Source of the DNA: Capnocytophaga catalasegens
GTDB lineage: Bacteria > Bacteroidota > Bacteroidia > Flavobacteriales > Flavobacteriaceae
Reading direction: 5' to 3'
DNA length: 64,000 bases
NCBI RefSeq assembly: GCF_026005215.1
Contig: NZ_BPMA01000018.1
Coordinates: 1 to 64,000, forward strand
The translations under genes and the position numbers were made by a program. The notes under the pieces were generated by a model. That model did not search any database and was not told the DNA's origin. It saw nothing but the letters and a program-made list of their open reading frames with translations. Positions 6,555 to 49,720 of the stretch are shown one piece after another. How positions within the stretch are numbered: position 1 is the first letter of the stretch; every line of letters starts with the position of its first letter.

Positions 6555-6587
6555 GATTCAATATTTTATTTTTTTAATTTCAAAGAT

Positions 6588-6623
6588 AAAAAAAGTCGCC
6601 TATAATGACAGACGACTTTTTGT
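6588..6623 (-). terminator. Terminator downstream of tpiA
   Basis: Arms AAAAAGTCG (6590-6598) and CGACTTTTT (6613-6621) form a stem. On the minus strand it is followed by a T-run, 15 bp after the tpiA stop codon. Confidence 0.75.
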
Positions 6624-6637
6624 TTTTCATACAAAAA

Positions 6638-7387: not shown

Positions 7388-7496
7388 AAAACGTAAATAT
7401 CTGTTATTTAATCAATTAAAATATTTTTATTATATTCAAAAATCGGATATAAAAGTACAACTTATTTTTATATTAAGTTACTTTTTTTTGAAAAAT

Positions 7497-21868: not shown

Positions 21869-21985
21869 CTGAAAAAAATTTAATCACAAACAGAGATAAA
21901 ACAAATTTTTCCTTATTCTATCTCAATTTGTGAGCATAACTATTGGTATTTCATACCAAATTTATAGTTAAATTTTGTGCAAAAA

Positions 21986-22282: not shown

Positions 22283-22315
22283 AATTATATATATTTAGTA
22301 TTTTTGTTAATTTTT

Positions 22316-35361: not shown

Positions 35362-35439
35362 AACACCATTTTAAAGGGTTAAATATTAAATTTTTGCTGA
35401 TTATTTATATTTTTATCTATATGAAAAGATTTTTACTGG

Positions 35440-35640
35440 TCAAAATTCATTTCTTATAAATCAAAATCTATTTCTTATCAGTAATAATTCATTTCCTATC
35501 GGTAAATACTGATTTCTTATGGGGCAGAACTTATATAATACAGGTCAAACCTTGCTTCCTTACCTTTAAAATGCTTTTCTGTATGGGAATTATCAAAATC
35601 TTATGGGTAAATACTCATCACTTACAGGGAATTCTTATGA
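35440..35640. repeat. Degenerate 21-22-bp tandem repeat array
   Basis: From 35440 the sequence falls into successive units of about 21 bp related to GTAAAAATTCATTTCTTATCG. The first four (to about 35523) are clear and the later ones are weaker. The spacing equals two helical turns. The later units merge into the 218-bp repeat at 35541. No gene occupies 35362-35781. Confidence 0.6.
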
Positions 35641-35758
35641 TATACGCAGCAATATCCGTGCCGTAAGTGGTAAAATTTCAGTAGATTAGTATTAAAATGC
35701 TGTTAAAAGAAAAGACGCCTTGAGGGCGTCTGTGGGGGTGGAGTTGTATTGGGTATTC
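35541..35758. repeat. 218-bp dispersed repeat, copy A
   Basis: This block matches 42936-43153 in the same orientation. The best-conserved part (about 35570-35735) is nearly identical, including the segment GATATACGCAGCAATATCCG. It contains the terminator-like hairpin at 35713-35731 and lies just after the leftward membrane-protein gene at 35782. Confidence 0.85.
35704..35731 (-). terminator. Terminator hairpin inside repeat copy A
   Basis: Arms AGACGCC (35713-35719) and GGCGTCT (35725-35731) form a 7-bp stem. Read on the minus strand it is followed by TTTTCTTTT and lies about 50 bp after the stop of the gene at 35782. Confidence 0.7.
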
Positions 35759-35781: not shown

Positions 35782-36261
35782 TTAATTCATCTGTAATAGC
35801 TTAGAAACATCTTCGGCGTGGATTCGACAATAGTACATCACATAAGCGATATAAGGAACAAAAAGCAAAATACTCCATAGCAATCCTTTGGCAAACGCCT
35901 GATAATTTGCGTTTTTCACAAAAAGATAAATCACCCATACAATATTCAAAGTCATCACGATATGCGACATTTGAGCAAAAATATTGGCTCCGCTCCAACC
36001 AAAAGTAAACATTCCCATCGTTCCGAAATAATACATCGGCAAGAGGACAAGAGGCAACAAAACTGCTTTTTTCTTCCATATAAACAGCAGAAAACAAAGC
36101 AAATAGACCAAACTTGAAGGCGAACAAGCGTTGAACATTACCCATTGTAACAGACTTACTTTCAGTTCCGTAAAGAAATACCACGAGCCACTGAGTGTCA
36201 GCAATAACAGCAAAAAAGCCAACACCATTCCGATTGTTTTTTCTTTTTTTGTAAGTGTCAT
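35782..36261 (-). CDS. Uncharacterised four- or five-span membrane protein
   Basis: The 159-residue product has hydrophobic segments at about 10-30, 45-62, 66-85, 98-115 and 125-142, and short loops. I do not recognise a family. It starts 6 bp after the AraC-type regulator gene and is therefore its likely operon partner and possibly its target. Its base composition is visibly less AT-rich than the surrounding core genes. Confidence 0.65.
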   Translation of the reverse strand: MTLTKKEKTIGMVLAFLLLLLTLSGSWYFFTELKVSLLQWVMFNACSPSSLVYLLCFLLFIWKKKAVLLPLVLLPMYYFGTMGMFTFGWSGANIFAQMSHIVMTLNIVWVIYLFVKNANYQAFAKGLLWSILLFVPYIAYVMYYCRIHAEDVSKLLQMN

Positions 36262-36267
36262 AGCTAA

Positions 36268-37125
36268 TTATTTTATAGGTAAATAAATTTCTGTTTTAAG
36301 TTTTTCAGGCGGTGTTTTTCGGGCATCATTCAAATATTTTTCAAAAGGAACAATACTGCGAAGTTCGTAACCGCTTTCGGGCAACCATTTTCCGAAAATT
36401 GTGTCGTACACTTTCCCTAAATTGTCGTATGCACCCTGATAGTGAAAAACGGCGTATTTGCCTCCCTCAATTTCTTTCACCCCAACCTCGCCCTGAGGCT
36501 TGGCAGGTTTGTGAATCGCCAAACAGATGTCTGACCGCTGTTTGTCTCCCTCCGTAATTTTAGGGTCATCGTGCGAGATGCAAATATGTTCAATACCTGC
36601 CGTAAAGAGCTTATTTTCCTTAACGAAAGCCCAAAGTTTGGCGTAAGTATCGCCGTAATTGAGTGTTCCATAAGTTCCTGTAAGGGCAATATAAACAACT
36701 TTTTTCGGCTCTAAATCAATGATTTTTGGAGCTTTTAGTTTGATTTCAGTGATAAATTCTTCTTTTCTCATAATATATAATGTTTTATTATTTCTGTATT
36801 CGGTAGGACTTACATCATAAAACTTTTTAAAGGATTTGGACAAGGACGAAACCATCTCATAACCAACTCTTTCCGAAATCTGCTCAACCGACAGATTAGA
36901 ATATCGGAGCAAAATCGCCGAAGCCTCTACCCGCAGACGCGTAATGTAAGCACCAACAGATTCATTTACAAAGGCTTTGAAAATGCGATGGAAATGAAAC
37001 TCCGAAAAATTGGCAATTTCGGCAAGGGTTTTCAGTTCTATTTTTTCATCTAAATGATTGCCGATATATTCGAGTACTTTGTTTATGCGTTCGCGGTAGT
37101 CTGCTTGTGTGGATTTTGTATTCAT
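36268..37125 (-). CDS. AraC-family regulator with GyrI-like ligand domain
   Basis: The 285-residue product has an N-terminal AraC helix-turn-helix pair (about 8-110; NHLDEKIELKTLAEIANFSEFHF... and VGYEMVSSLSKSFKKF) and a C-terminal GyrI-like/SoxS-effector domain (about 125-285) ending KTEIYLPIK. Such proteins bind small, often cationic or amphipathic, molecules and activate nearby genes. A TACCTTTG element (minus strand, 37154-37161) lies upstream. The downstream membrane-protein gene is the obvious candidate target. Confidence 0.9.
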   Translation of the reverse strand: MNTKSTQADYRERINKVLEYIGNHLDEKIELKTLAEIANFSEFHFHRIFKAFVNESVGAYITRLRVEASAILLRYSNLSVEQISERVGYEMVSSLSKSFKKFYDVSPTEYRNNKTLYIMRKEEFITEIKLKAPKIIDLEPKKVVYIALTGTYGTLNYGDTYAKLWAFVKENKLFTAGIEHICISHDDPKITEGDKQRSDICLAIHKPAKPQGEVGVKEIEGGKYAVFHYQGAYDNLGKVYDTIFGKWLPESGYELRSIVPFEKYLNDARKTPPEKLKTEIYLPIK

Positions 37126-37281
37126 CAGTATTGTATCTTTTAAATTTCTGAAACAAAGGTAATAAGGTTTAAAAGAATTTTGTTTTTCCTATCTTGCTAA
37201 ATTGTTTTTTGAAAAGATTTTTTTATCTCTGTTACAAAAGAAATTTTGCAAAGTTTATAAATGTATCAGGAAATTATAAAA

Positions 37282-37337
37282 AAATAAGGACGAAAATACT
37301 TCGCCCTTACTATTTTCTATTTGCTAATATGTATTTT
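37282..37337 (-). repeat. Weak, decayed copy of the carB 3' end plus terminator
   Basis: The terminator part (hairpin 37288-37306, then CTTACTATTTTCTATTTG) is nearly identical to 40756-40799. It is followed by a sequence that reads KIHISK-stop on the minus strand, compared with KMYLSK-stop in carB. It lies directly downstream of the restriction-modification operon. The terminator match is strong; the coding match is weak. Confidence 0.55.
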
Positions 37338-37362
37338 ATCTTTTTTAAGTGCTATTTCTATT

Positions 37363-38748
37363 TTAATTCCAAAAATCTAATAAATTTTTAATCGCTTCTT
37401 GAAAAAGTCTAGGAGCCTTTATTCCCAAAATAAGTTGTCCCTTCTCATTAAGTAAAAATCCAATCTCAATCTCTATAATTCGGGTTTCTTTGCTTCCGTA
37501 CAAAACTACGGTTCTAATAATTTTACTTTTAGGGTAATATTTTTTAATATAATGTTTCTCAATATAATCATAATTAGCCAATTCGGAAATTCCATTATGT
37601 CTAAACTGATATTTTTTTCCTTCAATATTAATTACCTCATTGCGATCAAAATCAAAAAGAATAAGGTCAGGAATGTGTATTATTTCATCTTTATTTCCTG
37701 CCTTGTATTTTTCCCGATCTTTATATTTTGCCAATGGAATAGGATCTCCTTGTTTTGGTATGAAGTAACCTTTTTCACTACCTGCGTGATTTTCAAAAAT
37801 AGAATATCCTTGCGTAAAATTTTCAACCACCAAATGTATAAATATTGTTCCTAATTTTTCGCCATCTTTATCATATTTCCAATAACTTTTATTCATTTCT
37901 ACTTTTGGAATAGTTAATTTATCTAATTCTATTCCTATTTTATTAGCAATTTGAATAAATTTATTGGTTTTTCCAATATGATTTTGCTCTAATCCGTGTT
38001 GGGTGATTACAATTCTCTTTTCCCAACCTAATTTTCTCAAAACAGCAGAAATAATACTCAAAGCCCCAATATTAGGGTCGTGAGAAAGTCCATTACTTTT
38101 AAAAAGCCGTCCCGATATTTCTATTTTATCTTTTTCTCTGTTTAACAAAATAGGTACATTTCCTTTGGGAGGATGTCTCATATTATTTTTAAAATCAATA
38201 ACTTCGTCTATTTTTTCAAAAGGAATAAATATATCTTTATCAAGTTTTTTACCTAAAATTTCAACACCCAATGTTAAAAGTAGTCTTGTTCCAAAAATAT
38301 AAGTTTCCGTTGGCTTTTCCTTTTGTTCTATCTGCAAATTATAAAGCATTATCTTTTTAGCGTTCGGATAATAACTATCAATAAAAACAAACTTTGAACA
38401 ACGCTGATAAACACCTGTATTCCGACTTTCTTTATCATCCGTTTTTGTTTCTTCTATAGCATAAATAGGAATGTCTTTTTGTTTAGGTTCTTCTTTTTGA
38501 TTAAAAATTAAAAAATCTGTAAAACTCGAATTACCAGAAACAGTTTTTATATAAACTTTATTAACCTTATTACAGCGAAATCCTGTTACTTCATAAGTAA
38601 AAGCAAACTTTCCACCTTGTAAAATAGGTAAAATTCTAATAGAATCAATAAACCCCGATAATTTATAATCCTGAGTGAATTTTTGTAAAATTACAGCAAG
38701 TACTTGTTTCTTAGGTCGTTCTTCTGTTAATATCCAAAGATTGTTCAT
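37363..38748 (-). CDS. Type II restriction endonuclease (predicted)
   Basis: The 461-residue product ends an operon of two adenine methylase genes and overlaps the second by 4 bp (ATGA). It contains an EETKTDDKESRNT segment near residue 100 and a late LILFDFDRNEVINIEGKKY strand, both plausible parts of a restriction nuclease core; I could not assign the PD-(D/E)xK residues with certainty. Context is the main evidence. Two separate methylases suggest an asymmetric recognition site. The sequence is markedly AT-rich, unlike the flanking regulator genes, which is consistent with separate acquisition. Confidence 0.75.
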   Translation of the reverse strand: MNNLWILTEERPKKQVLAVILQKFTQDYKLSGFIDSIRILPILQGGKFAFTYEVTGFRCNKVNKVYIKTVSGNSSFTDFLIFNQKEEPKQKDIPIYAIEETKTDDKESRNTGVYQRCSKFVFIDSYYPNAKKIMLYNLQIEQKEKPTETYIFGTRLLLTLGVEILGKKLDKDIFIPFEKIDEVIDFKNNMRHPPKGNVPILLNREKDKIEISGRLFKSNGLSHDPNIGALSIISAVLRKLGWEKRIVITQHGLEQNHIGKTNKFIQIANKIGIELDKLTIPKVEMNKSYWKYDKDGEKLGTIFIHLVVENFTQGYSIFENHAGSEKGYFIPKQGDPIPLAKYKDREKYKAGNKDEIIHIPDLILFDFDRNEVINIEGKKYQFRHNGISELANYDYIEKHYIKKYYPKSKIIRTVVLYGSKETRIIEIEIGFLLNEKGQLILGIKAPRLFQEAIKNLLDFWN

Positions 38749-39803
38749 TTTTCCAAAATATAAAGCTGTTCTCTAATATATTTTTTATGTTTACTTTCAC
38801 CGTTATTATTGCTTTTAAAACGTAGATAATCAAATTCTACTAATTCTACTTTTCCACATTTTTGTAGCACTGAGAAAATATCTTTTTCTTTCATAATTCC
38901 CTCTGAGTTGTAACTAAGAACTAAATATTTAAACTTTCCTTTCAGAGCAATCTTATTTAATTCTTCTAATGCCGTTTTAGAATTACAAAATTTAGACTTT
39001 TGTTGTTGATAATCTCGCATACCTGATACTCCCTTTATTTGTGGGTTATCATACTTTGCAATAGTTTCTAAAAGATGATAATTTGGAGCGTATTGCCGTT
39101 GGTTATAGGGCGGATCTAGATAAAAAATATCTGCTTGTATTTCTTCTAATAACTCAACAGAGTCTTGATTAAAAGATCTATTTTCTTCCTTATTAGTAAT
39201 TAATTTTATAGGTCTTAAAACCATTTTCTTAACCGCTCTTGGATCCCATTTTTTATGAAAAGCCGCATAAACTCCTGCCACATTTGCATAGAAAGAAACC
39301 GATTCAAGCAAACAAGCAAGTAAGATAAAATATTCATTTATAGAGATTAAATTTTCTTCTTTCCATTGCTCTATTTGTAAACGAATGGCATCTATAATTT
39401 TTCCATTTTGATCCGAAAAAAACATTCTTGGTTGTTCCAATTTTTGTGTTCCAGTTGGCGTATAATTTTCATAAATAAACCCTTCTTTCCCTGAAATTTT
39501 ATTAAGAAACGAAACAACTTTTTCTAAATTCGTTTCAAATAAATTTGTGCTGTCAATCAAAATATTTTGCAATAATTTCTCAAACAAATCGAAACTATTA
39601 TTAGTAATATAAGCTCTTTGTAAGACATAGGAAAAATACATTAAATCAGAAGAAAAAACTTTATATCCTTTTGACTTAAAATATTGACCTACACTCGTGG
39701 TTCCCGCAAAAAAATCAAAAAAAGACTTTCCTTCTATATTTTTTATCTGCAGTGTATGATAAATTTTATCACACAAATTTTCTTTATTGCCTATATATCT
39801 CAT
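38745..39803 (-). CDS. D12-class adenine-N6 DNA methyltransferase
   Basis: The 352-residue product has the alpha-class order: an N-terminal GNKENL motif X-like segment, the SAM motif I FFDFFAGTTSVG (about 28-39), and catalytic motif IV FYLDPPYNQRQY near residue 230. It overlaps the upstream methylase gene by one base and the downstream endonuclease gene by four. It probably protects one strand of the recognition site. Confidence 0.92.
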   Translation of the reverse strand: MRYIGNKENLCDKIYHTLQIKNIEGKSFFDFFAGTTSVGQYFKSKGYKVFSSDLMYFSYVLQRAYITNNSFDLFEKLLQNILIDSTNLFETNLEKVVSFLNKISGKEGFIYENYTPTGTQKLEQPRMFFSDQNGKIIDAIRLQIEQWKEENLISINEYFILLACLLESVSFYANVAGVYAAFHKKWDPRAVKKMVLRPIKLITNKEENRSFNQDSVELLEEIQADIFYLDPPYNQRQYAPNYHLLETIAKYDNPQIKGVSGMRDYQQQKSKFCNSKTALEELNKIALKGKFKYLVLSYNSEGIMKEKDIFSVLQKCGKVELVEFDYLRFKSNNNGESKHKKYIREQLYILEK

Positions 39804-40738
39804 TATAATTCAATATTGTTAATTGAAAATAAGTCTTGCTTTTTAGGTGGTTCATAGTTAGTTATTAGCACTTCAACACTTGCTTTTTTATCCCTGACAA
39901 GAGTTTGGTAATTAGAATTTGCATAATGAAAATCAATATAATTAACCCTATAATTAGGATTATACCTCAACCAATTTTTCAATATTTCATTTGACTTCCC
40001 TTTGTGTTCTAAAACATTTGATAATGCAAATTTTATATTTCTTCCATTTAGGTTATCTAATAAATCAAGTAATTGATATTCTTCTTTTTGTGTCCAACCT
40101 TTAAATCCTCTTTTACCATCATTATAAGTTCCTGTGGTTATTAAATAAGGAGGATCACAATACACAAAATCATTACTTTGTAGTTCTGAAAAATCAAATT
40201 CTGAAAAACATTTATCAGAAAAAACAGGTTGAATTTCTTTTATCCTATTGATAAAGGCAACTAACTTCTGTTTCATTTTAGGATTAAAACTACTTCGTTC
40301 TCTTCCAAAAGGATTATTAAACTCGTGATTATTATTAAAGCGAATTTGATGATTAAATGAAAAGGCAATCAAAACGAACAAATCCAAAGGATTTTTATTT
40401 TGATTATACTGATTTCTTAATGTTTTATACCCTGCTTCGTTGGTTTGTGAAAGATTTAATTCTTTAATTTTATTTTCTATATAGTTTGTTATTTTTTCTA
40501 ATTCATTTTTTTGAAATATTCTATACATATCCACCAAAAAGGAAAGATTGTCGTTAAAAAACACCTTATTAGCAGAGACATTTATCCCTACATTACATCC
40601 TCCCGAAAATAAATCCACAAAATAGTTAATGTTTGTTGAAAAAAGAGGTAAAATTTGATCTAAAATTTTACTTTTCCCCCCTATGTAATTTAATGGTGAT
40701 TTTATTATGTTTTTCAATGTCAACTCTTTTGTTTGCAA
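39803..40738 (-). CDS. Dam-type (D12) adenine-N6 DNA methyltransferase
   Basis: The product (up to 311 residues) shows PLNYIGGKSKI (motif X), VDLFSGGCNVGIN (motif I) and the catalytic FVYCDPPYL (motif IV). This is the Dam/D12 arrangement. There is no ATG near the N-terminus. The TTG at 40738 overlaps a TAACTTTG -7 element (40736-40743), so translation more likely begins at the in-frame TTG at 40723 or 40717. It is the first gene of the restriction-modification operon. Confidence 0.9.
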   Translation of the reverse strand: MQTKELTLKNIIKSPLNYIGGKSKILDQILPLFSTNINYFVDLFSGGCNVGINVSANKVFFNDNLSFLVDMYRIFQKNELEKITNYIENKIKELNLSQTNEAGYKTLRNQYNQNKNPLDLFVLIAFSFNHQIRFNNNHEFNNPFGRERSSFNPKMKQKLVAFINRIKEIQPVFSDKCFSEFDFSELQSNDFVYCDPPYLITTGTYNDGKRGFKGWTQKEEYQLLDLLDNLNGRNIKFALSNVLEHKGKSNEILKNWLRYNPNYRVNYIDFHYANSNYQTLVRDKKASVEVLITNYEPPKKQDLFSINNIEL

Positions 40739-40755
40739 AGTTACAAAAATATTAA

Positions 40756-40884
40756 AATAAGGACGAAAAATACTTCGCCCTTACTATTTTCTATTTGTTG
40801 ATTTCTATTGCCTATTTGGAAAGATACATTTTCCTTCTTGCATAGAGTTCATAGAATTAGTCATCTTTTGAGGTCGTCTATGAA
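40756..40884 (-). pseudogene. Displaced carB 3' end (24 codons, decayed) with terminator
   Basis: On the minus strand 40884-40812 matches the last 24 codons of carB (FIDDLKDD...LYARRKMYLSK-stop). It has one inserted A, one nonsense change (CAA to TAA) and five other differences that are all synonymous (for example GAC/GAT, GAG/GAA, AGT/TCC, AAG/AAA). A terminator hairpin (40761-40780) follows, as after carB itself. The pattern shows descent from a functional carB allele. Confidence 0.85.
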
Positions 40885-40910
40885 AAAAGATTTATATTTT
40901 GGTAAAAGTT

Positions 40911-41324
40911 TTACCCCTCAAAAATAATCATCCAAGAGATACCGAATTTACCTTTAAAATCTCCAAAATAGCCAAAAAATTGCTCTTCCATAGGCATTTC
41001 TATTTCGCCCCCTTCGGAAAGTGCGTGGAAAAGGCGGTCAGCTTCGGCTTTGCTATCTACGGCAATACTCACATAGTTGTGATTGCCCGTAACAAGTTTT
41101 TGCCCAAGCGATTCGAAAATGTCCGACCCCATTAGTTTGTCATTTTCGCCTATCGGAAGTTCGATATACATAATGTGGTTTTTCTCGTTTTCAGGGACTT
41201 GCATTGGAGTTTCATCAGAACGAACCACCATTGTAAAATCGCCCCCAAAAGCCTTTTTGTAGAAATTAAACGCTTCTTCGCAATTCCCATTAAAATTCAA
41301 ATACGGATTGATTCTTGTTGCCAT
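40911..41324 (-). CDS. VOC-family protein (PhnB-like)
   Basis: The 137-residue product starts INPYLNFNGNCEEAFNFYKKAFGG and contains the two beta-alpha-beta modules of the vicinal-oxygen-chelate fold, ending GKFGISWMI. It resembles the PhnB/glyoxalase-like subgroup, whose substrates are mostly unknown. A TATTTTTG -7 element (minus strand, 41351-41358) is just upstream. It sits alone between two displaced carB ends, with a base composition richer in GC than the restriction genes. Confidence 0.88.
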   Translation of the reverse strand: MATRINPYLNFNGNCEEAFNFYKKAFGGDFTMVVRSDETPMQVPENEKNHIMYIELPIGENDKLMGSDIFESLGQKLVTGNHNYVSIAVDSKAEADRLFHALSEGGEIEMPMEEQFFGYFGDFKGKFGISWMIIFEG

Positions 41325-41478
41325 TTTTTTATCGTTTTAATTATTAAGGGCAAAAATAAGCAGTCGGAACGAAAAAAATCTTGCCATAGGACAAGAAATA
41401 AATTCATTTACATTATTCTGTAGATAATCTTTCTATTTTTGCAAAAATAAATTCAATAATATCAGAAATTTACCCAAT

Positions 41479-41745
41479 ATGCTACAATCGTCTAAACGAA
41501 TGGACTTACAGCCTATCGGTTGGCTGATGAAGCTCAGTCGTGCGTTTATTATTTTTACGGGGTTTCTATTATTAGTAGCATATTCCGTAATATTCTATGT
41601 CCTCTGCTTAAGTTATCAATCAGACTCAGAAGACTTGTTCATAGTTTTGTTTTTATTCGGGGCTACTACCTTATTTTTTTATATTTGGAATACGCAAGAT
41701 AGTACGATTAAAAACGCAAGCCATTATGCAAATTTATGTAGATGA
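41479..41745 (+). CDS. Membrane protein, N-terminal part (possibly frameshifted)
   Basis: The 88-residue frame has two transmembrane segments (about 22-45 and 55-72) and ends after STIKNASHYANLCR, overlapping the next frame by 20 bp. The alternative frame stays open upstream of the next start, so the two may be pieces of one protein of about 235 residues. A TATTTTTG -7 element at 41434-41441 precedes it. Family not recognised. Confidence 0.55.
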   Translation: MLQSSKRMDLQPIGWLMKLSRAFIIFTGFLLLVAYSVIFYVLCLSYQSDSEDLFIVLFLFGATTLFFYIWNTQDSTIKNASHYANLCR

Positions 41746-42196
41746 AATTGGGCTACATTATGTGCATCGGGATAGCAAGAAGACTTCTTTTTTGTACGAT
41801 AAATTTCAGAAATCCGACAACCGAATGATTTCCGATGTGTTTCACAAAACCATTCGCAGAGGAAAATATATCGTATTTAAAATTGTTTTTTTCTATCCCA
41901 ATGAAAAGGGTAATGTACGGCAACAATTTTTTCAAACAAAAGCAGATGCACTTTTCGCGTATATTTTTGCACGAAACGAGGCGGAACTTGAAGCCTTTTT
42001 CATTAAAAACATTGTACAACATCGTCCCGATTTACAGATTGATAAAGATATTTTCAAATATCATTATATCGATGAAAAAACATTGGTCTTTGACAGAGCA
42101 AAAAGAAAGAAAACTACTATATCCACTTTGTACATAATACTGATTGTAACAATAGTATTTGTATTTTTAATGATAATATTTTTGAATAATAACTAG
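41726..42196 (+). CDS. Membrane-anchored protein, C-terminal part (possibly frameshifted)
   Basis: The 156-residue frame starts MQIYVDEIGLHYVH, has a beta-rich middle and a single C-terminal transmembrane segment (about 132-153). Its frame is open for at least 11 codons before the ATG, reading into the transmembrane segment end of the preceding frame. It could be a separate gene or the second half of a frameshifted one. Family not recognised. Confidence 0.55.
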   Translation: MQIYVDEIGLHYVHRDSKKTSFLYDKFQKSDNRMISDVFHKTIRRGKYIVFKIVFFYPNEKGNVRQQFFQTKADALFAYIFARNEAELEAFFIKNIVQHRPDLQIDKDIFKYHYIDEKTLVFDRAKRKKTTISTLYIILIVTIVFVFLMIIFLNNN

Positions 42197-42241
42197 TTAC
42201 AAAATCTGGTTCAGGTAGAGCCAATAAGGCAAGAATTTAAC

Positions 42242-42820
42242 TTATAATGCAATCTCCTTCCGAATCCTACTCAGGGATGTATCGGTAATTCCCAAATAGG
42301 TGGCAATGTATTTTAAAGGTACGCTTTGAATTACTTGTGGCTTGTCTTTGAGGAATTGCAAATAGCGGTCTTTGGCGGGAAGCGTAATCATCTCGAGCGA
42401 ACGCTGTTGGGTTTGGAAGAGTTTTTCGGTCATAAAAAGTCGTCCCCATTCCGAAACTCCTGCAATGGAATGATACAACTGCTGAAAATCATCGAATTTC
42501 ACTTCCCACGCTATGCAATCGGTCAGGGCAACGATGTTTTCAAGGCTTGACTGTTGCTTGAAGAGTGACAATTCATTGATAACGAACTCCTGCTCACAGA
42601 AAAAACCTGTAGTAATGTCGTTTCCTTCGTAATCGTGGACAAAACTCCGAGCAATACCACTTTCCAAAGTGAAATAGCTTCTAGAAACTTCGCCTTTTTG
42701 TAAAATAAAATCTCCTTTCTTGAAACTCACTTGCTGATGTGCCGCCTTGATTCGTTCAAGTTGTTCAACCGAAATCAGCGGATGAGTATAAAGTGTGGAA
42801 AAATTGAGTGTGGTTTGCAT
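42242..42820 (-). CDS. Crp/Fnr-family transcriptional regulator
   Basis: The 192-residue product has a cyclic-nucleotide-binding-like beta roll (about 20-115; FKKGDFILQKGEVSRSYFTLESG) and a C-terminal helix-turn-helix (about 165-190; IATYLGITDTSLSRIRKE). It lacks the Cys cluster of Fnr. Its effector is unknown. It converges on the membrane-protein gene and lies just left of a displaced carB end. Confidence 0.9.
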   Translation of the reverse strand: MQTTLNFSTLYTHPLISVEQLERIKAAHQQVSFKKGDFILQKGEVSRSYFTLESGIARSFVHDYEGNDITTGFFCEQEFVINELSLFKQQSSLENIVALTDCIAWEVKFDDFQQLYHSIAGVSEWGRLFMTEKLFQTQQRSLEMITLPAKDRYLQFLKDKPQVIQSVPLKYIATYLGITDTSLSRIRKEIAL

Positions 42821-42851
42821 TTTGTATATAGTCTTTTAAGTTTTATGTTAA

Positions 42852-42935
42852 AAAAGGGCGAAAAATTTTTCGCCCTTACTATTACCTAACCCCTATTGCC
42901 TATTTGGACAAATACATTTTCCTTCTTGCGTAAAG
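42852..42935 (-). pseudogene. Displaced carB 3' end (last 12 codons) with terminator
   Basis: On the minus strand 42935-42900 encodes LYARRKMYLSK-stop, identical in protein to the end of CarB. The DNA differs only at synonymous positions (CTC/CTT, TAT/TAC, AGT/TCC, AAG/AAA). It is followed by a perfect 20-bp palindromic terminator, GGGCGAAAAATTTTTCGCCC (42856-42875). The 218-bp repeat copy B begins at the next base on the other side. Confidence 0.88.
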
Positions 42936-43153
42936 CAGGTTGAAATTCATTCCTTCATAGTCAGAATGCTTTTCTGTATGGAAATTATCAAAATCCTATG
43001 GGTAAACATTCATCACTTGCAGGGATTTCTTATGATATACGCAGCAATATCCGTGCCGTAAGTGGTAAAAATTCAGCAGATTAGTATTAAAATGCTGTTA
43101 AAAACAAAAGACGCCGTGAGGGTGTCTGTGGGGTAGGGGTTGTATTGGTATTT
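42936..43153. repeat. 218-bp dispersed repeat, copy B
   Basis: This block matches 35541-35758 in the same orientation with scattered substitutions and about one indel. It abuts a displaced carB end on its left and lies about 70 bp from the end of the PIN-domain gene on its right. It contains the hairpin at 43109-43127. The stretch 42821-43225 has no gene. Confidence 0.85.
43100..43127 (-). terminator. Terminator hairpin inside repeat copy B
   Basis: Arms AGACGCC (43109-43115) and GGTGTCT (43121-43127) pair with one G-T wobble. On the minus strand the stem is followed by TTTTGTTTTT. It lies about 100 bp downstream of the PIN-domain gene. Confidence 0.65.
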
Positions 43154-43225
43154 TTTGAATATATTTTGAAAAAAATTGAGAACTCAAGATATAATAAAAT
43201 TTGTCAATGAACAACTATTCTGTTA

Positions 43226-44296
43226 TTATCGATAGTCATTACTCTTATCAGAAATGTCAAAACTAATTTCTAATCCTTCATTTATAGATTCTATTTCAAA
43301 ATTTCCTTGATAATCTTCTTCTGAAATAATTTCGGCTGTTACAATCATTTTTGATCTAAATTTCTTTTCAAAACATTCAAAATTCTGTTCTAAATAATGA
43401 TAACTCTTATCATCACTATCGTAGTACATAGTATCTTCATCATCCGTTAAAACACTGACTTCTATATCAACATCTCCTGTAACTTCAACTATAACATAGT
43501 CTTCTTTAATATCCACAATTTTATATTCTAAGTCTCCGACATTAACTTCACTAATGTGCAAATCATAGATTTCCTTCCAATTTACAGCGTCAAAATATAA
43601 TGAAATATCATCTATGTTTGATTTGAACCAATCAATAAGTTCTTGTTTAAGAAAATTATAGTTCTGTGAAAACAGCAGTTTAGTAATATCAGATTTAGCC
43701 TTATCTAAATCTTTATATTTATCATCTAAATATTGGTCATAGTCACTTCTAATTGTCAAATTAGATAACGGACATTTAATAAAATCATTATCTATCGAAA
43801 ACATAAAAGCACTCGAATTATTTTGAGATAAAAAATCTTTTATCAATTCCAAACTAAATGCATCGGGAAATTCTGATTTTTTCTTTCCTTCTCCAAAAGG
43901 AGGTAAAGAATTAAAATAGCAATCAAAAACTGGTTCTATGTCGATAACCTTGTATGGTATAAGTTTTATAATGTCTTTATTAATTAATTCTTTAAAATTA
44001 TTAGTAAATTCGTCTTTAATTGAGGTTTCATTAATTTCTTTAAAGAAAACATCAAAAGCTTTACTATTCTTTAGGATACAGTTTTCCCAAGCTTTAATGA
44101 ATTTTTGATGGTTTGAAGCAGCTTTATCAAGATGTTCAACAAATTTACTTTCCAATTCATTATAAGTGATTGCAGTAATATAAATTTCGATTATTCCTTT
44201 ACTACTTAAACTCAATAAAGATTTTATTTTAGTTCCGTGTAAAAAGTTTTCTTTAATAAAAATACTTGTATCTAAAACTATTATATCCTTCATCAT
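43226..44296 (-). CDS. PIN-domain protein (DUF4935-like)
   Basis: The 356-residue product has an N-terminal PIN nuclease core: VLDTSIFIK (Asp 8), TYNELESK (Glu), SEFPDAFSLELI (Asp) and SIDNDF (Asp), which together form the expected acidic active site. The C-terminal half (about 210-356) is beta-rich with acidic stretches (EVSVLTDDED) and may be a sensor or inhibitory domain. DUF4935-type PIN proteins occur in defence islands and act as ribonucleases. No separate antitoxin gene is seen. It is the block nearest to carB in the accessory region. Confidence 0.8.
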   Translation of the reverse strand: MMKDIIVLDTSIFIKENFLHGTKIKSLLSLSSKGIIEIYITAITYNELESKFVEHLDKAASNHQKFIKAWENCILKNSKAFDVFFKEINETSIKDEFTNNFKELINKDIIKLIPYKVIDIEPVFDCYFNSLPPFGEGKKKSEFPDAFSLELIKDFLSQNNSSAFMFSIDNDFIKCPLSNLTIRSDYDQYLDDKYKDLDKAKSDITKLLFSQNYNFLKQELIDWFKSNIDDISLYFDAVNWKEIYDLHISEVNVGDLEYKIVDIKEDYVIVEVTGDVDIEVSVLTDDEDTMYYDSDDKSYHYLEQNFECFEKKFRSKMIVTAEIISEEDYQGNFEIESINEGLEISFDISDKSNDYR

Positions 44297-44403
44297 TACA
44301 ATTTTTAAAATATATGACTTTATTTGGCATAAATTAAAAGGGTATGCTTTTTTCTAAATACAAAAATAATCTATATCTGTGAGTAAAAACATCCATTATA
44401 TCA

Positions 44404-44430
44404 AAAAAAGCGCGAAAAAATTTTCGCCCC
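44404..44430 (-). terminator. carB terminator hairpin
   Basis: Arms GCGAAAA (44412-44418) and TTTTCGC (44421-44427) with a T-run beyond on the minus strand. It lies about 35 bp after the carB stop. Homologous hairpins follow each displaced carB end at 42.86, 40.77 and 37.30 kb. Confidence 0.75.
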
Positions 44431-44460
44431 TACTATTGCCTAATCCCTATTTTCTATTCC

Positions 44461-47313
44461 CTACTTACTCAAATACATTTTCCTTCTTGCATAGAGCTCA
44501 TAGAATTGGTCGTCTTTGAGGTCGTCTATGAAAAGAATACTCTCGCCGGTAGATTTCATTTCGGGTCCTAAACGCTTATCCACGTTCGGGAACTTATTAA
44601 ACGAAAACACGGGCTGTTTGATAGCAAATCCGTCCAATTTCGGTTGGAAATCGAAATCGGTTACTTTCTTCTCGCCAAGCATCACTTTGGTAGCGTAGTT
44701 CACGTACGGCTCCCCGTAGGCTTTGGCGATAAACGGAACGGTACGCGACGCCCTCGGGTTGGCTTCGATGATGTACACCGTGTCGTCCTTAATGGCAAAC
44801 TGAATGTTTATCAGTCCCACCGTGTTTAAGGCTTTGGCGATTTTGTGCGTATGGTCTTTGATTTGTTGCATCACAAACTCACCGATGTTAAACGGTGGCA
44901 GCGTGGCATTACTATCCCCCGAATGCACCCCACACGGCTCGATGTGTTCCATAATCCCAATGATATACACGTTTTCGCCGTCGCAAATGGCGTCGGCTTC
45001 GGCTTCGATAGCTCCATCTAAATAATGGTCGAGCAAGAGTTTGTTATTCGGAATTTTACGAAGCAAATCCACCACGTGTTCTTCCAATTCGTGCTTATTG
45101 ATAACGATTTTCATTCCTTGTCCACCCAACACATACGACGGACGCACCAAAAGCGGGAAGTCCAACTCATCGGCTAACTTTAAGGCTTCGTCGGCAGTTT
45201 CGGCAACACCAAATTTCGGATACGGAATGCCCAATTCTTTCAATAAAGTAGAAAAACGCCCTCGGTCTTCTGCCAAATCCAACGCGTCAAAACTCGTTCC
45301 GATGATTTTAATGCCATATTTATGGAGTTTTTCAGCCAATTTCAAAGCGGTTTGTCCACCCAACTGAACGATAACACCTTCGGGTTTTTCGTGACGAATG
45401 ATGTCGTAAATATGTTCCCAAAAAACAGGCTCGAAGTAGAGCTTGTCTGCCGTGTCAAAATCCGTAGAAACTGTTTCAGGGTTGCAGTTAATCATAATAG
45501 TTTCGTAACCGCACTCGGCAGCCGAAAGCACTCCGTGAACACAACAGTAATCGAACTCAATTCCCTGCCCAATGCGGTTAGGTCCTGAGCCTAACACAAC
45601 TACTTTTTTGCGGTCGGAAACGATACTATCATTCGCTGTGAAAAGATTGCCGTTCGCATCACGAATTGGAGCTTCAAACGTAGAGTAATAATACGGTGTT
45701 TGTGCTTTAAACTCGGCAGCACACGTATCTACCAACTTATATACGCGGTTGATACCCAATTCTTCACGTTTTTTATAGACTTCACTTTCCCAACACCCCA
45801 ACATATGAGCGATTTGGCGGTCGGCAAAGCCTTTTTGTTTGGCTTCCAATAGTAAATCTTTCGGAAGCGTTTCTATTTTATAGGTTGAAATTTCTTTCTC
45901 AATGCTGTATAGTTCTTCGTATTGCTTCAAGAACCACATATCTATCTTAGTGATTTCGTGAATTCTCGAAAGTGGAATGCCCATCGCGATGGCGTCGTAA
46001 ATCACAAAGACTCTATCCCAACTCGGATTGGTAAGTTTGTCGATGATTTGCTCATAATTTTTGTATCCTTTGCCATCTGCTCCCAATCCATTGCGTTTAA
46101 TTTCAAGTGATTGCGTAGCTTTATGAAGCGCCTCTTGGAACGAGCGACCGATACCCATTACTTCTCCTACCGATTTCATTTGCAGACCGATAGTGCGATC
46201 AGAACCTTCGAATTTGTCAAAGTTCCAACGCGGAATTTTTACGATAACATAATCCAACGTAGGCTCGAAAAGTGCTGAAGTGGACTTAGTGATTTGGTTA
46301 GAAAGTTCGTCCAAGTTATAACCGATAGCCAATTTTGTTGCAATTTTGGCAATCGGATAGCCTGTTGCTTTGGAAGCCAATGCCGAAGAACGTGATACAC
46401 GCGGATTGATTTCTATGGCGATAATATCCTCATTTTCATCAGGAGACACGGCAAACTGAACGTTACATCCTCCTGCAAAGTCGCCAATGCTTCGCATCAT
46501 TTTGATAGCCATATCCCGCATACGTTGAAATGTTCTATCGGAAAGCGTCATCGCAGGAGCAACGGTAATGGAGTCGCCCGTGTGGATACCCATTGGGTCC
46601 ATATTTTCAATGGTACAGATAATTACCACATTGTCATTTTTATCGCGAAGAAGTTCCAATTCGTATTCCTTCCAACCCATTAATGCCTTGTCAATCAACA
46701 CTTCGTGAATAGGAGAAGCCTCCAAACCACGTGTGAGAAGCGTATCGAAATCCTCCTTTTTGTACACCACAGAAGCTCCCGTTCCGCCCAACGTAAAAGA
46801 AGGACGAATTACCAAAGGAAAACCGAACTTTTGGGCAATTTCTTTTCCTCGAAGGAAGGAATTTGCCGTTTCGGACGGAGCCATCGGAATGCCAATTTTG
46901 TCCAAAAGCACACGGAATTTCTCGCGGTCCTCAGTAATTTGGATTGCATCAATATCCACCCCAATGATTTCCACACCAAAGTCTTTCCAAATCCCTTTTT
47001 CAGCGGCTTCAATGCAAAGATTTAAGGCTGTTTGCCCTCCCATTGTGGGCAAAACGGCATCAATATTGGGATGTTTTTTCAGAATTTCAACTATGGATTT
47101 GGTAGTCAAAGGCTTCAAATAGACGTGGTCAGCCATTGAAGGGTCAGTCATAATGGTGGCAGGATTGCTGTTGATAAGCACCGTTTCGATGCCGTCCTCA
47201 CGTAGCGAACGCAACGACTGCGAACCTGAATAGTCAAACTCACAAGCTTGTCCGATAATAATTGGTCCTGAACCAATTAACAATACACAATTTAAATCTT
47301 TACGCTTTGGCAT
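44461..47313 (-). CDS. carB: Carbamoyl-phosphate synthase large subunit
   Basis: The 950-residue enzyme makes carbamoyl phosphate for arginine and pyrimidine synthesis. Two homologous ATP-grasp halves are complete: GSGPIIIGQACEFDYSG and GSGPNRIGQGIEFDYCC mark their starts, and INPRVSRSSALASKATG and EANPRASRTVPFIAK mark their ends. After LGPEMKSTGES only about 30 residues remain, so the allosteric MGS-like domain of E. coli CarB is absent, which I believe is normal in Flavobacteria. Its base composition is clearly richer in GC than neighbouring core genes. It begins 14 bp after a DUF262 gene with no space for its own promoter. carA is not in the window. Confidence 0.96.
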   Translation of the reverse strand: MPKRKDLNCVLLIGSGPIIIGQACEFDYSGSQSLRSLREDGIETVLINSNPATIMTDPSMADHVYLKPLTTKSIVEILKKHPNIDAVLPTMGGQTALNLCIEAAEKGIWKDFGVEIIGVDIDAIQITEDREKFRVLLDKIGIPMAPSETANSFLRGKEIAQKFGFPLVIRPSFTLGGTGASVVYKKEDFDTLLTRGLEASPIHEVLIDKALMGWKEYELELLRDKNDNVVIICTIENMDPMGIHTGDSITVAPAMTLSDRTFQRMRDMAIKMMRSIGDFAGGCNVQFAVSPDENEDIIAIEINPRVSRSSALASKATGYPIAKIATKLAIGYNLDELSNQITKSTSALFEPTLDYVIVKIPRWNFDKFEGSDRTIGLQMKSVGEVMGIGRSFQEALHKATQSLEIKRNGLGADGKGYKNYEQIIDKLTNPSWDRVFVIYDAIAMGIPLSRIHEITKIDMWFLKQYEELYSIEKEISTYKIETLPKDLLLEAKQKGFADRQIAHMLGCWESEVYKKREELGINRVYKLVDTCAAEFKAQTPYYYSTFEAPIRDANGNLFTANDSIVSDRKKVVVLGSGPNRIGQGIEFDYCCVHGVLSAAECGYETIMINCNPETVSTDFDTADKLYFEPVFWEHIYDIIRHEKPEGVIVQLGGQTALKLAEKLHKYGIKIIGTSFDALDLAEDRGRFSTLLKELGIPYPKFGVAETADEALKLADELDFPLLVRPSYVLGGQGMKIVINKHELEEHVVDLLRKIPNNKLLLDHYLDGAIEAEADAICDGENVYIIGIMEHIEPCGVHSGDSNATLPPFNIGEFVMQQIKDHTHKIAKALNTVGLINIQFAIKDDTVYIIEANPRASRTVPFIAKAYGEPYVNYATKVMLGEKKVTDFDFQPKLDGFAIKQPVFSFNKFPNVDKRLGPEMKSTGESILFIDDLKDDQFYELYARRKMYLSK

Positions 47314-47327
47314 TTTTTCCTATGTTT

Positions 47328-49040
47328 TTAGTTTTTTTTCCAAATTTTAACGGCCTCATTATAGAGAAAATCAGCTCTTTTTTGTATTTCTTCCTCATTC
47401 CAATTTTCTAACGAAAGAAAAGGAACCAAAGTTTTTATTCCCGATGAATAAAGTGCCAAACCTCCTCTTTTATCTTTTCCTTTTTTCTTAGTTTTCCAAT
47501 TCGCATCTCGGATTGATGAATTTAAAGACTGCGTAATAATAGCGAGGTTACCAAGAGTGAGTAATTTCCGATTTCTAAAATCTCGTTTCTCTTTATCATT
47601 TATTTTCCCCCAATTATTTTCCCATTTTTTAGGCATTAAGTGTTCCAGAGTATATTTTGAAATTCCTAAAAGGCGAGTACTATCCATTCCATTTCGCAAT
47701 TTAGATTCTATAAAATATACAATCCCTGCTGCTTGTTTATTTACAAGTATAGCATTGTCAAATCCTTTTTTTAACTCTTCATCATTAGGAAAGAAGTTGA
47801 TTTGGTCTTCTTGCCTCTCAAAAAAGTTTATGAACTCTTGCTTTGATAAAATTTCATTCTGAATGAGTCTATCGGTAAAAAGTTGATTATAATTTTTTGT
47901 ATTAGCGTGAATTACCATTCTACGCATCACATAACTTTCTAATATTTCAAAAAGTTCATTTTGAGTATTTTTATCATTTTGAGTATTTTTCAGAACATAT
48001 AAAATATACGGAATTAAAGTGGAAGTATCTAATCCAAAAATAATTGTCGTTATTCTTTCTATGCCATTATTTGGAGTAAGTTCAGTATTGACAACTTCAT
48101 AATCAAAATTACCACTAAATATTTTTGCATAATCTTTTATCTCTAAAAGAATATCATTTTTGTTTAGATTGTAATTTTTTATAAGATTTTTGTAAGATTC
48201 AAAAAGCGTTTCTACTTTTGAAAATTCTATCTTATCTTCTGTTTTAATTTTTAAAGTTGGTTCTTGAATTTTTATTTGTAAATATGCCCAAAAAAATAAA
48301 TCAATAAATGTTCTACGAATTCTACCAGTGGTTATTTCTCTATCCCAATAATTTTTGGTTTCATCATCGGCTTCAAATATATTTTTCCAATATTTTTCGT
48401 ATAAATCTTTTTCCTCCCTACCAAAAAAATAATTTTTAAGTAATTCAGCAGTAGTTAACTTAACACCAAGAGAGTTAATAGTATCAAAAATTTGTTGCTC
48501 ATCTTCTCGTTCATCAAGGTCAATTCCTACAAAAAGAATATTCGTTAAAATTTTACCAAAATCTAATTTCTCGGGATTTAAATTCTTTTTAAAATAGGTA
48601 TAAGCCAAAGTGATATTATCCGTTTCTGATAAATCTTCTAATGTAGATAAATTTAAAATTATATTAAAATTTTCAACATCATTATGATTATGTAATAAGG
48701 AGATACTTTCATCAATTAGTTTAAAAATTCGTTCAAATCTCCCATCTTGATTGGTTTTCAAACACAAAACTTTAAAAAAGATGTTCAAAGTGGTTAATCT
48801 TTGTTGTCCATCAATCACAGTTCTTCGGTCTCCTGCCCTACTTACTGTTTGGGTTGGTTGTTGCTTTAGAATTACCGAACCTAAAAAATATGGTTTATCG
48901 GTCTCACTTACATTTTCCATATCTTCCAGTAGCCTTTCCCATTGGTCTTCCCCCCAAACATAAGCTCTTTGAAAAAAAGGAATTTCTAAAACCCTATTTC
49001 CATTAAAAATATCATTGATTGTTTTTTTTCCCGCTTCCAT
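47328..49040 (-). CDS. DUF262/DUF1524 protein (GmrSD-like)
   Basis: The 570-residue product has the DUF262 N-terminal ParB-like domain (IPFFQRAYVWGEDQWERLLED and the signature VIDGQQRLTTL) and a C-terminal DUF1524-like HNH nuclease (LEHLMPKKWENNW, then LLTLGNLAIITQSLNSS). This is the architecture of fused GmrSD type IV restriction enzymes, which attack modified phage DNA, and of related defence proteins. It is AT-rich and immediately upstream of carB on the same strand, so the two must share a transcript unless a promoter lies inside this gene. Confidence 0.88.
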   Translation of the reverse strand: MEAGKKTINDIFNGNRVLEIPFFQRAYVWGEDQWERLLEDMENVSETDKPYFLGSVILKQQPTQTVSRAGDRRTVIDGQQRLTTLNIFFKVLCLKTNQDGRFERIFKLIDESISLLHNHNDVENFNIILNLSTLEDLSETDNITLAYTYFKKNLNPEKLDFGKILTNILFVGIDLDEREDEQQIFDTINSLGVKLTTAELLKNYFFGREEKDLYEKYWKNIFEADDETKNYWDREITTGRIRRTFIDLFFWAYLQIKIQEPTLKIKTEDKIEFSKVETLFESYKNLIKNYNLNKNDILLEIKDYAKIFSGNFDYEVVNTELTPNNGIERITTIIFGLDTSTLIPYILYVLKNTQNDKNTQNELFEILESYVMRRMVIHANTKNYNQLFTDRLIQNEILSKQEFINFFERQEDQINFFPNDEELKKGFDNAILVNKQAAGIVYFIESKLRNGMDSTRLLGISKYTLEHLMPKKWENNWGKINDKEKRDFRNRKLLTLGNLAIITQSLNSSIRDANWKTKKKGKDKRGGLALYSSGIKTLVPFLSLENWNEEEIQKRADFLYNEAVKIWKKN

Positions 49041-49488
49041 AACATTCTATCTTTTCTTAATTCTGTATCAAATCATAAATTGGTTTTTACATATCTCCGT
49101 TATCACTAATAAGAGTATAACTACTAATTTTTACAGGCAAAACATGAAAATATACAATTAAAAATCAAAGAGTTATATTTTTATTTTTGATAAATTATCA
49201 CAAAAAAATCATTTATCACACCAATAACGGATATACAAATTAGTTTTCATCTTGATCTATTGCAAAAAATACAACAACTGAATTTTCATCTAGATTTCTC
49301 TCCTTTGAAGATATTTTCCAAGTAACGATAAGTCAAGTATCTGTCTCTTTCAAAGAACAACTCCGTTTCGTTTGATTAAAATTTCCCGTCAACTATCAAA
49401 GGGTACCTTCAAAAAACAGAAATTTTTAAAAAAAGGTGTTACCTAAAAAAGATAACACCTTTATATATTATAAAAATCAACCATCGAC
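49041..49488. other. Intergenic region with a possible gene relic
   Basis: No complete gene is seen in these 448 bp. On the minus strand 49375-49286 is open and reads NETELFFERDRYLTYRYLE followed by NIFKGEKSR-stop, with protein-like composition but no start codon. It may be the remnant of a decayed gene and I do not recognise it. The right end carries the rpmH terminator. Confidence 0.4.
49430..49464 (-). terminator. rpmH terminator
   Basis: Ten-base arms AAAGGTGTTA (49432-49441) and TAACACCTTT (49453-49462). On the minus strand a T-run follows, 25 bp after the rpmH stop. Confidence 0.88.
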
Positions 49489-49647
49489 TTATTTTTTATG
49501 TCTTGGTTCTGAAGAAACTGTTAATTTTTTTCTTCCTTTAGCTCTTCTTCTTGCCAATACTTTTCTTCCGTTGGCAGTTGCCATACGCTCTCTGAAACCG
49601 TGCTTATTTCTTCTCTTTCTTTTTGAAGGCTGAAATGTTCTTTTCAT
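49489..49647 (-). CDS. rpmH: Ribosomal protein bL34
   Basis: This 52-residue gene encodes the small basic protein bL34 of the large ribosomal subunit. It begins [20 protein letters not shown], followed by [19 protein letters not shown], the invariant core of the family. Its promoter is 75 bp upstream and a strong hairpin follows. It is not beside dnaA, unlike in many bacteria. Confidence 0.97.
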
Positions 49648-49720
49648 AACGCTTTATACTTTATCTCTTTAAAAATTAACTTATATATTCTTTTACAATA
49701 GAAAATTTCTTAATTGAGGG

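What the first reader, a model, noticed from the sequence alone, without database searches (positions are those of the whole stretch)
37282..44540. Serial insertions at the 3' end of carB, each leaving a displaced carB tail and terminator
The last 12 codons of carB plus its terminator recur at 42.85-42.94 kb, the last 24 codons plus terminator at 40.76-40.88 kb, and a weak version at 37.28-37.34 kb, all in the same orientation. Differences from carB in the two clear copies are almost all synonymous, apart from one inserted base and one nonsense change in the 40.8-kb copy. That means each tail derives from a once-functional carB allele and not from a local non-coding duplication. Between the tails lie unrelated gene blocks: a PIN protein; a regulator, membrane protein and VOC protein; and a restriction-modification system. 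The simplest reading is repeated integration at the carB 3' end, where each incoming element supplies a replacement C-terminus and pushes the old one away. This resembles phage and island integration into gene 3' ends. No integrase is present, so the mechanism (lost recombinase, recombinase supplied elsewhere, or homologous recombination after DNA uptake) is open. I know of no described carB hotspot.
Basis: partly seen in the sequence, partly recalled or inferred. Interest (0 to 1): 0.85.

Follow-up and report, generated by a model that had tools for sequence, protein, structure and literature searches.

The report
Stacked gene blocks behind carB
In some mouth bacteria of the genus Capnocytophaga, foreign gene blocks, several resembling anti-phage defence genes, have been added one after another behind the core gene carB, and old ends of carB were pushed aside, leaving a readable record of gene traffic between species.

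Summary
Two displaced carB 3' ends plus terminator lie at 42.85-42.94 and 40.75-40.89 kb; the 37.28-kb copy is spacer plus terminator only. No other of 46 tested window ORF ends comes near (79 against at most 34). The host is a Capnocytophaga. Blocks stacked here occur singly between carB and a conserved 'leader' in relatives: regulator-VOC in C. cynodegmi, restriction-modification in G016. Each displaced end resembles another species' carB end more than its own carB (small margin for one). The window's carB region (35.4-49.7 kb) is imported: carB groups with C. cynodegmi/C. canis, dnaA and uvrC elsewhere. In G003, carB switches parent at nt 1191-1197, and a 97.6% C. cynodegmi-like block ends with an 18-bp near-match to carB, followed by an older carB end. 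Right joints differ and no integrase is adjacent. Best explanation: incoming DNA recombines through long homology in carB and joins with short or no homology at its other end, as proposed for Vibrio T6SS immunity arrays; related to minimal mobile elements and insertion with long target duplication. Caution: a variable neighbour alone is not special here (uvrC varies as much). A new variant of a known kind.

The parts
49489..49647 (-). rpmH-like ORF (52 aa, ribosomal protein L34 by eye), left neighbour of the carB region; 49420-49663 is 93-96% to G003, G006, G009, G016. The gene is conserved, so this is weaker evidence of import than the rest
   Evidence: name recalled from the sequence
47328..49040 (-). 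GmrSD-type (DUF262) restriction-like gene between rpmH and carB; 99.8% nt to C. cynodegmi G008 over 1486 of 1713 bases
44461..47313 (-). carB, intact; 90.7-96.4% nt to G003, G006, G008, G009, G016; the last 4 informative sites switch to G009-like (between carB nt 2835 and 2842)
44398..44460 (-). current carB spacer and terminator hairpin (44412-44427)
43226..44296 (-). block 1: PIN_12 protein; a homologue (also PIN_12; 72% nt over 259 bases, 66% over 441) is directly behind carB in G018
42960..43130 (-). fragment of the conserved 'leader' (first 171 nt, 95% to G008), just before joint J1 with a displaced carB end
42850..42936 (-). displaced carB end 1: last 12 codons (42900-42936) plus spacer and terminator
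40911..42820 (-). block 2: cNMP-binding (Crp-type) regulator 42242-42820(-), two ORFs of unknown family 41479-42196(+), VOC/glyoxalase-type protein 40911-41324(-); regulator and VOC are 91-92% to the block directly behind carB in C. cynodegmi G008, the two ORFs between have no match in the regions compared
40754..40886 (-). displaced carB end 2: last 24 codons (frameshifted, nonsense) plus spacer and terminator; joint J2 lies in the 18-bp near-match 40869-40886
37363..40738 (-). block 3: type II restriction-modification module (two D12-class adenine methyltransferases and a type II REase-like protein); together with displaced end 2 one continuous 95.4% match (3560 bp) to G016's carB end + RM
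37281..37327 (-). spacer + terminator only (the 'weak' copy); joint J3 with the RM 3' flank at about 37327
35782..37125 (-). block 4: AraC/GyrI-like regulator 36268-37125 and a protein of unknown family 35782-36261; 96-97% nt to G003
35430..35734 (-). conserved 'leader', right-hand anchor of the array (86-88% to relatives); begins with a terminator hairpin (35713-35731); edge of the imported DNA

Best explanation
This is an insertion ladder without a recombinase of its own, anchored on a core gene. Imported chromosomal DNA carries a donor carB 3' part, one or more gene blocks and part of the conserved leader. It recombines with the recipient through the long homology in carB. Its other end may recombine in the leader, which swaps one block for another and leaves no scar. 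In other events that end joins the recipient's own carB 3' end through a short near-match (16 of 18 bases) or almost no homology. carB stays whole because the donor supplies a new C-terminus and terminator, while the old tail and everything behind it are shifted downstream. Repetition stacks blocks, the newest next to carB. Once formed, a block flanked by two carB ends can move by ordinary homologous recombination. Shown by sequence: donor-like tracts, carB parent switches, joints, foreign origin of the carB region. Inferred: route of DNA entry (natural transformation is my guess), order of events, leader-to-leader swapping, and whether the VOC joint formed once or several times.
For: Blocks stacked here occur singly between carB and the leader elsewhere: RM in G016, regulator-VOC in G008; G006 has a SIR2-like and G009 an HNH-like gene there. 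RM with displaced end 2 matches G016's carB end + RM as one 3560-bp stretch at 95.4%. All 4 distinct displaced ends with coding sequence are closer to another species' carB end than to their own genome's; for tail 1 only 82.1 against 78.9%. G003 is the cleanest case: its carB switches from mostly G009-like (61:33 sites) to G006/G008/G016-like (4:97) at nt 1191-1197, reached by 0 of 2000 permutations. Its regulator-VOC block is 97.6% to G008 over 2464 bp and ends with the 18-bp near-match; then come a carB end 95.0% to G000's and 93.9% to G009's current end (own 81.2%) and, after the AraC block, a leader nearest to G009 (89.6% against 86-87%). By uvrC G003 is sister to G009 (0.992). In the flank tested, 0 of 200 Markov resamplings gave any 16/18 match, and it is the only site in G006's carB reaching 13/18. 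In the window, carB groups with G006/G008/G016 (1.000), uvrC and dnaA with G018/G004/G001/G012 (1.000).
Against: Competence of Capnocytophaga was not tested; ComEC is present, but also in 10 of 14 control genomes, E. coli included. A variable neighbour is not special: carB's downstream neighbour is shared by 12 of 190 genome pairs, uvrC's by 11 of 190. Displaced ends were found behind carB in only 2 of 20 genomes (stretches of 3 to 40 kb searched, mostly 20 kb), plus one 56 kb away in C. canis. In G003 the AraC block between tail and leader has no match near carB in G009, so 'native' there is only partly shown, and the methyltransferase-GmrSD-HEPN set has no match in the relatives compared. 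The RM step fits less well: the terminators on both sides of it resemble each other (51 of 57) more than G016's, like a target duplication or later conversion. The PIN block has no close relative near carB in the dog/cat-associated genomes. The left switch in G000 rests on four sites within 9 nt. One genome per species: no event was seen between sister strains.
Confidence: 0.7

Rival explanations
1. Insertion with long target duplication, as described for Helicobacter RM genes: a block enters and the recipient's own carB end or terminator is duplicated on both sides, with no donor carB needed.
For: RM is flanked by two copies of an unusual spacer/terminator; the right copy is closer to the left one (51 of 57) than to any current carB end (at most 48 of 57). 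RM genes are the typical cargo (passages of PMC1643837).
Against: The tails with coding sequence do not match their own carB: G003's tail 81.3% to its own, 95.5% to G000's; G000 tail 2 79.9% to its own, about 90% to others. The carB parent switch in G003 needs donor carB.
Confidence: 0.15
2. Site-specific integration at the carB 3' end by a recombinase encoded elsewhere or lost, with TTTTCAYAGACGMCCTCA or a neighbouring stretch as core.
For: The same VOC|carB-end joint lies at this 18-mer in G000, G003 and C. canis, with three different tail alleles behind it. Replacement of a gene 3' end by the insert is typical of such integration (recalled).
Against: Two other right joints are elsewhere (near carB -37 and in the spacer). 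Left switches differ (nt 1191-1197 in G003, 2835-2842 in G000). No PF00589 match lies next to carB in genomes with the shared blocks; no viral contig carries the carB end + spacer motif. Serine recombinases were not searched.
Confidence: 0.08
3. Local tandem duplication and rearrangement of carB ends within one genome, with blocks shuffled in afterwards.
For: G003 holds a 2.2-kb second copy (98.7%) of VOC-tail-AraC 16 kb further on, so duplication does happen.
Against: The tails carry other species' alleles, and blocks with their tails match single arrangements in other species.
Confidence: 0.04
4. Assembly chimera: DNA of a dog/cat-associated Capnocytophaga joined into the window contig.
For: Identity to those genomes jumps at 35430 and about 49663; the genome is in 100 contigs.
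Against: One carB in the genome, contamination 0.23%, completeness 99.98%. Displaced carB ends and a carB parent switch are also in G003, a single-contig genome.
Confidence: 0.04

Closest known systems
Sequential displacement of T6SS effector-immunity modules in Vibrio cholerae (Kirchberger et al. 2017, PMC5361080; abstract and passages seen)
   Same: A conserved anchor upstream, incoming modules from other strains, the old 3' part shifted behind the new module, stacking; homology-facilitated illegitimate recombination proposed; no integrase known
   Different: There the modules are effector-immunity pairs and the immunity genes are kept; here the anchor is the housekeeping gene carB, the displaced piece is a carB tail plus terminator, and the cargo is regulators and defence-like genes
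rhs C-terminal displacement (Jackson et al. 2009; seen only in the text and reference list of PMC5361080, otherwise recalled)
   Same: Strings of orphaned 3' ends behind an intact gene
   Different: In rhs the new 3' end changes the protein; here it restores the same protein
Minimal mobile elements of Neisseria (definition seen in passages of PMC3082526)
   Same: Different gene cassettes between the same conserved flanks (here carB and the leader)
   Different: Stacking with displaced gene ends is not part of that definition; the right flank here is a leader sequence, not always followed by the same gene
Insertion with long target duplication in Helicobacter pylori (Nobusato et al. 2000, as described in passages of PMC1643837)
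   Same: Direct repeats around inserted RM genes
   Different: Here the repeats with coding sequence are different alleles, not copies of the recipient's own sequence
Phage or island integration into gene 3' ends (recalled)
   Same: Replacement gene end supplied by the insert
   Different: No tyrosine recombinase next to carB, no constant core

Membership tests
Homology-facilitated illegitimate recombination product | One end joined through long homology | tested here: met
   G003 carB parent switch at nt 1191-1197, 0 of 2000 permutations; for G000 only the last 4 informative sites switch
Homology-facilitated illegitimate recombination product | Other end joined with little or no homology | tested here: met
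   J2: 16 of 18 near-match; J1 and J3: a few bases, judged by eye
Homology-facilitated illegitimate recombination product | Arises on uptake of linear DNA, RecA-dependent | not testable with these tools
   needs bench work; only ComEC presence seen
Minimal mobile element | Different whole-gene cassettes between the same conserved flanks | tested here: met
   carB...leader with different content in G000, G003, G006, G008, G009, G016, species representatives and not strains; the leader is followed by gene c3 in 4 of these 6 (G003, G006, G008, G016)
Minimal mobile element | Exchange by homologous recombination in both flanks | tested here: inconclusive
   left flank recombines; right flank not tested for breakpoints
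Insertion with long target duplication | Flanking repeats are copies of the recipient's own target (tails with coding sequence) | tested here: not met
Insertion with long target duplication | The same, for the RM step alone | tested here: inconclusive
   terminators on both sides of RM alike at 51 of 57 positions
Site-specific integrative element | Constant crossover core | tested here: not met
   three different right joints, two different left switches
Site-specific integrative element | Tyrosine recombinase gene in the element | tested here: not met
   PF00589 in 20 genomes, none next to carB in genomes with the shared blocks
Site-specific integrative element | Serine recombinase gene in the element | not tested
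   no search made; the families found for the block proteins name none

The most novel reading that the evidence does not exclude
A displaced carB end turns the block in front of it into a portable cassette with carB homology on both sides, so that ordinary recombination can add it to any carB in the genus. The carB 3' end would then work as an integrase-free acceptor site through which defence genes circulate and drag carB alleles across species. The VOC|carB-end joint at the same 18-bp near-match in three species, with three tail alleles behind it, would be its signature.
Probability: 0.3. Interest if true: 0.72.

Novelty: new variant of a known kind. Interest (0 to 1): 0.58.

Why it matters
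Much bacterial accessory DNA sits in variable regions with no integrase, and how it gets there is often guessed. Here the sequence keeps a record: donor-like tract, anchor, and the old gene end left behind. It suggests that core genes with conserved 3' ends can act as acceptor sites, and that a core metabolic gene can cross species together with the cargo beside it, which would mislead gene trees. The displaced ends give a searchable signature that could be applied to every core gene in any genus.

Tried and rejected
(1) 'Variable downstream gene = hotspot': rejected as evidence on its own. Genome pairs sharing a homologous ORF within 1.5 kb: carB downstream 12 of 190, carB upstream 36 of 171, uvrC downstream 11 of 190, uvrC upstream 20 of 190, dnaA downstream 55 of 171, dnaA upstream 153 of 153. 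The argument rests on the shared anchors and the allele evidence instead. (2) A dispersed repeat as source of the terminator copies: not supported; 5 matches in the own genome, 4 here. Part of the leader (about nt 158-395) does recur elsewhere in several genomes; its first part was seen only in the carB arrays. (3) Integrase: PF00589 in 20 genomes. Matches exist in each genome, but near carB only in G013 (other clade, about 6 kb) and G016 (14.1 kb). (4) Phage carrying the carB end: 0 viral contigs with the spacer motif; one viral contig matched the coding motif, and its ORF list shows phage-like genes and no carB. (5) RNA gene at 49.4-49.6 kb (my note says RNA; wrong): no Rfam or tRNA match there; it is a 52-aa L34-like ORF. 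The same note's '91% to its own' is also wrong; one search gives 81.3%. (6) PADLOC gave no match for PIN or the HEPN-type protein. (7) Literature: no paper on a carB 3'-end hotspot appeared in the listings (20 of 1,482 listed; 'carb' matched as a word start, unspecific; 15 of 132 listed; 3 of 3). PMC12109144 (passages) reports carB annotated in predicted Liberibacter prophages; not pursued. (8) G019's carB lies in two contig pieces; G019 was left out of the carB alignment, tree and fit (19 genomes). (9) Raw uvrC identity of the window's genome is slightly higher to the dog/cat-associated genomes (72.8-74.4%) than to G018/G004/G001/G012 (68.1-72.5%); only the tree (support 1.000) and dnaA (72.7-75.6 against 63.9-66.5%) put it with the latter. 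This is against a simple reading by identity.
Full report
What is there. carB is intact at 44461-47313(-). Behind it, in its own direction, lie: a PIN gene; a leader fragment; displaced carB end 1 (42850-42936); a regulator, two ORFs of unknown family and a VOC-type gene; displaced carB end 2 (40754-40886); a type II restriction-modification module; a spacer + terminator copy (37281-37327); an AraC/GyrI regulator with a protein of unknown family; and a leader (35430-35734). The displaced ends are not chance (0.07 expected, 3 found), and carB stands alone among 46 window ORF ends (79 against at most 34). The 37.28-kb copy has no coding sequence and scores 24, within that background; its match to the 40.8-kb spacer/terminator (51 of 57) is what marks it.

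Where it is. The relatives are Capnocytophaga: one search names C. cynodegmi DSM 19736, C. felis and C. canis CcD38, on contigs of the same lengths as those holding carB in G008, G009 and G006. I call these three with G003 and G016 'dog/cat-associated' because of their place in the carB and uvrC trees; the hosts are recalled, and G003 and G016 are unnamed. I did not name the window's species.

The blocks in relatives. Among 20 genus genomes, the block directly behind carB is RM in G016; regulator, metallo-hydrolase, a DinB-like protein (name recalled) and VOC in G008; a SIR2-like gene in G006 and an HNH-like gene in G009 (PADLOC, weak); a methyltransferase-GmrSD-HEPN set followed by regulator-VOC in G003; a PIN gene in G018. 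In G006, G008, G009 and G016 this block ends at the leader, a 442-nt sequence beginning with a terminator hairpin; in G003 the leader follows a displaced carB end and the AraC block. G000 has a leader at the far end of its stack and the first 171 nt of one inside it. Leaders of 300 nt or more near carB were found in 6 of 20 genomes, short weak matches in G005 and G019, none in the other 12.

The displaced ends are other species' alleles. Best matches to current carB ends: G003's tail (present in two identical copies) to G000 95.5%, G009 92.5%, own 81.3%; G000 tail 2 to G008/G006 90.3%, G016 89.6%, own 79.9%; C. canis tail to G003 90.7%, own 84.1%; G000 tail 1 to G008 82.1%, own 78.9%, a small margin. 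Tail 2 and the RM block form one 3560-bp match to G016's carB end + RM (95.4%); tail 1 and the regulator form one match to G008 (90.0% over 693).

An imported tract in G003. By uvrC, G003 is sister to G009 (0.992). Its carB is mostly G009-like up to nt 1191 and G006/G008/G016-like from 1197 (61:33 against 4:97 sites, 0 of 2000 permutations). Further right its regulator-VOC block is 97.6% to G008 over 2464 bp and stops at the end of an 18-mer that G008 has where the VOC flank meets the leader (TTTTCACAGACGCCCTCA) and that is shared at 16 of 18 positions with carB nt 2780-2797. After it come a carB end 95.0% to G000's and 93.9% to G009's, then the AraC block (94.1% to G000, no match near carB in G009), then a leader nearest to G009 (89.6%; G006, G008, G016 86-87%). 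This is what one imported tract leaves if its left end pairs in carB and its right end joins the recipient's own carB end. The methyltransferase set between carB and the regulator has no match in the relatives compared, so it may have come in more than one step. In G000 the last four informative sites of carB are G009-like (switch between nt 2835 and 2842, 0 of 2000 permutations), and the end with its terminator is 94.0% to G009.

The joints differ. J2 (VOC|carB) lies in the 18-mer in G000, G003 and C. canis. J1 (leader|carB) lies near carB -37 and J3 (RM flank|spacer) behind the stop codon, both with little homology by eye. A constant att core is therefore not met. No tyrosine recombinase lies next to carB in this group.

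The region is imported in the window's genome. From 35430 to about 49663, block by block, the best matches are 86-99.8% to dog/cat-associated genomes (tails 1-3 somewhat lower, 83-90%), apart from the PIN gene and the two ORFs at 41479-42196, which have no close match there. Outside it the listed matches to any genus member are about 65-79%, with short stretches at 31.2-31.5 kb, where the tRNA genes lie, at 81-89% (the lists were cut). carB falls with G006/G008/G016 (1.000), uvrC and dnaA with G018/G004/G001/G012 (1.000), although raw uvrC identity alone would not show this. Of 171 pairs, G000 with G006, G016 and G008 deviate most from a carB-on-uvrC fit (2.9-3.1 sd), then G006 with G016 and G008 (2.6 sd), so carB seems to have moved between other species too. 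The genome holds one carB.

Limits. A variable neighbour is not special here. One genome per species; no reads; competence untested. In Riemerella anatipestifer natural transformation needs ComEC, DprA, ComF and RecA; homologues of its other transformation proteins are reported in Capnocytophaga, but Flavobacterium johnsoniae, which also has them, was not competent under the same conditions (passages of PMC8459023). The RM step may be a target duplication.

Place among known things. The mechanism is the one proposed, not proven, for Vibrio T6SS immunity arrays (passages of PMC5361080). Single blocks between fixed flanks fit the definition of minimal mobile elements (passages of PMC3082526). 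Insertion with long target duplication (passages of PMC1643837) fits at most the RM step. What is different here is a housekeeping gene as anchor, restored each time, with its cast-off ends as a record.

Noticed in passing
window 47328-49040: A GmrSD-type gene sits between rpmH and carB, 99.8% nt to C. cynodegmi over 1486 bases, and is also next to carB in G005 and G007. rpmH lies right upstream of carB in G003, G006 and G015, and about 1.2 kb away in G009 and G016: the 5' side of carB is variable too.
   Followed up: partly
window 49086-49240: A stretch of about 155 bp upstream of the GmrSD gene recurs once elsewhere in the genome (C32, 87%) and is missing from the matching C. cynodegmi region.
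   Followed up: no
L040/L041 (G003), oriented 5091-7325 and 20951-23184: A 2.2-kb segment (VOC, displaced carB end, AraC, following gene, leader start) is present twice, 98.7% identical, 16 kb apart; the second copy lies behind another regulator (87.6%).
   Followed up: partly
L090 (C. canis) 7250-7820: A VOC gene plus displaced carB end stands 56 kb from carB and in opposite orientation on the same contig: the pair has moved away from carB.
   Followed up: partly
carB and uvrC trees: carB of G001/G004/G012 lies close to that of G002/G007/G013/G014/G017 (87-90% in the pairs listed) while uvrC of these pairs is 67-70%: carB may have moved in the second clade as well.
   Followed up: no
leader nt 158-395 (L046:2994-3231): This part of the leader contains short imperfect repeats and recurs at unlinked places in several genomes, the window's included (C17, C2).
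   Followed up: no
window 36268-37125: The AraC regulator carries a GyrI-like domain that also matches Pfam Cass2 (integron-associated effector binding protein).
   Followed up: no
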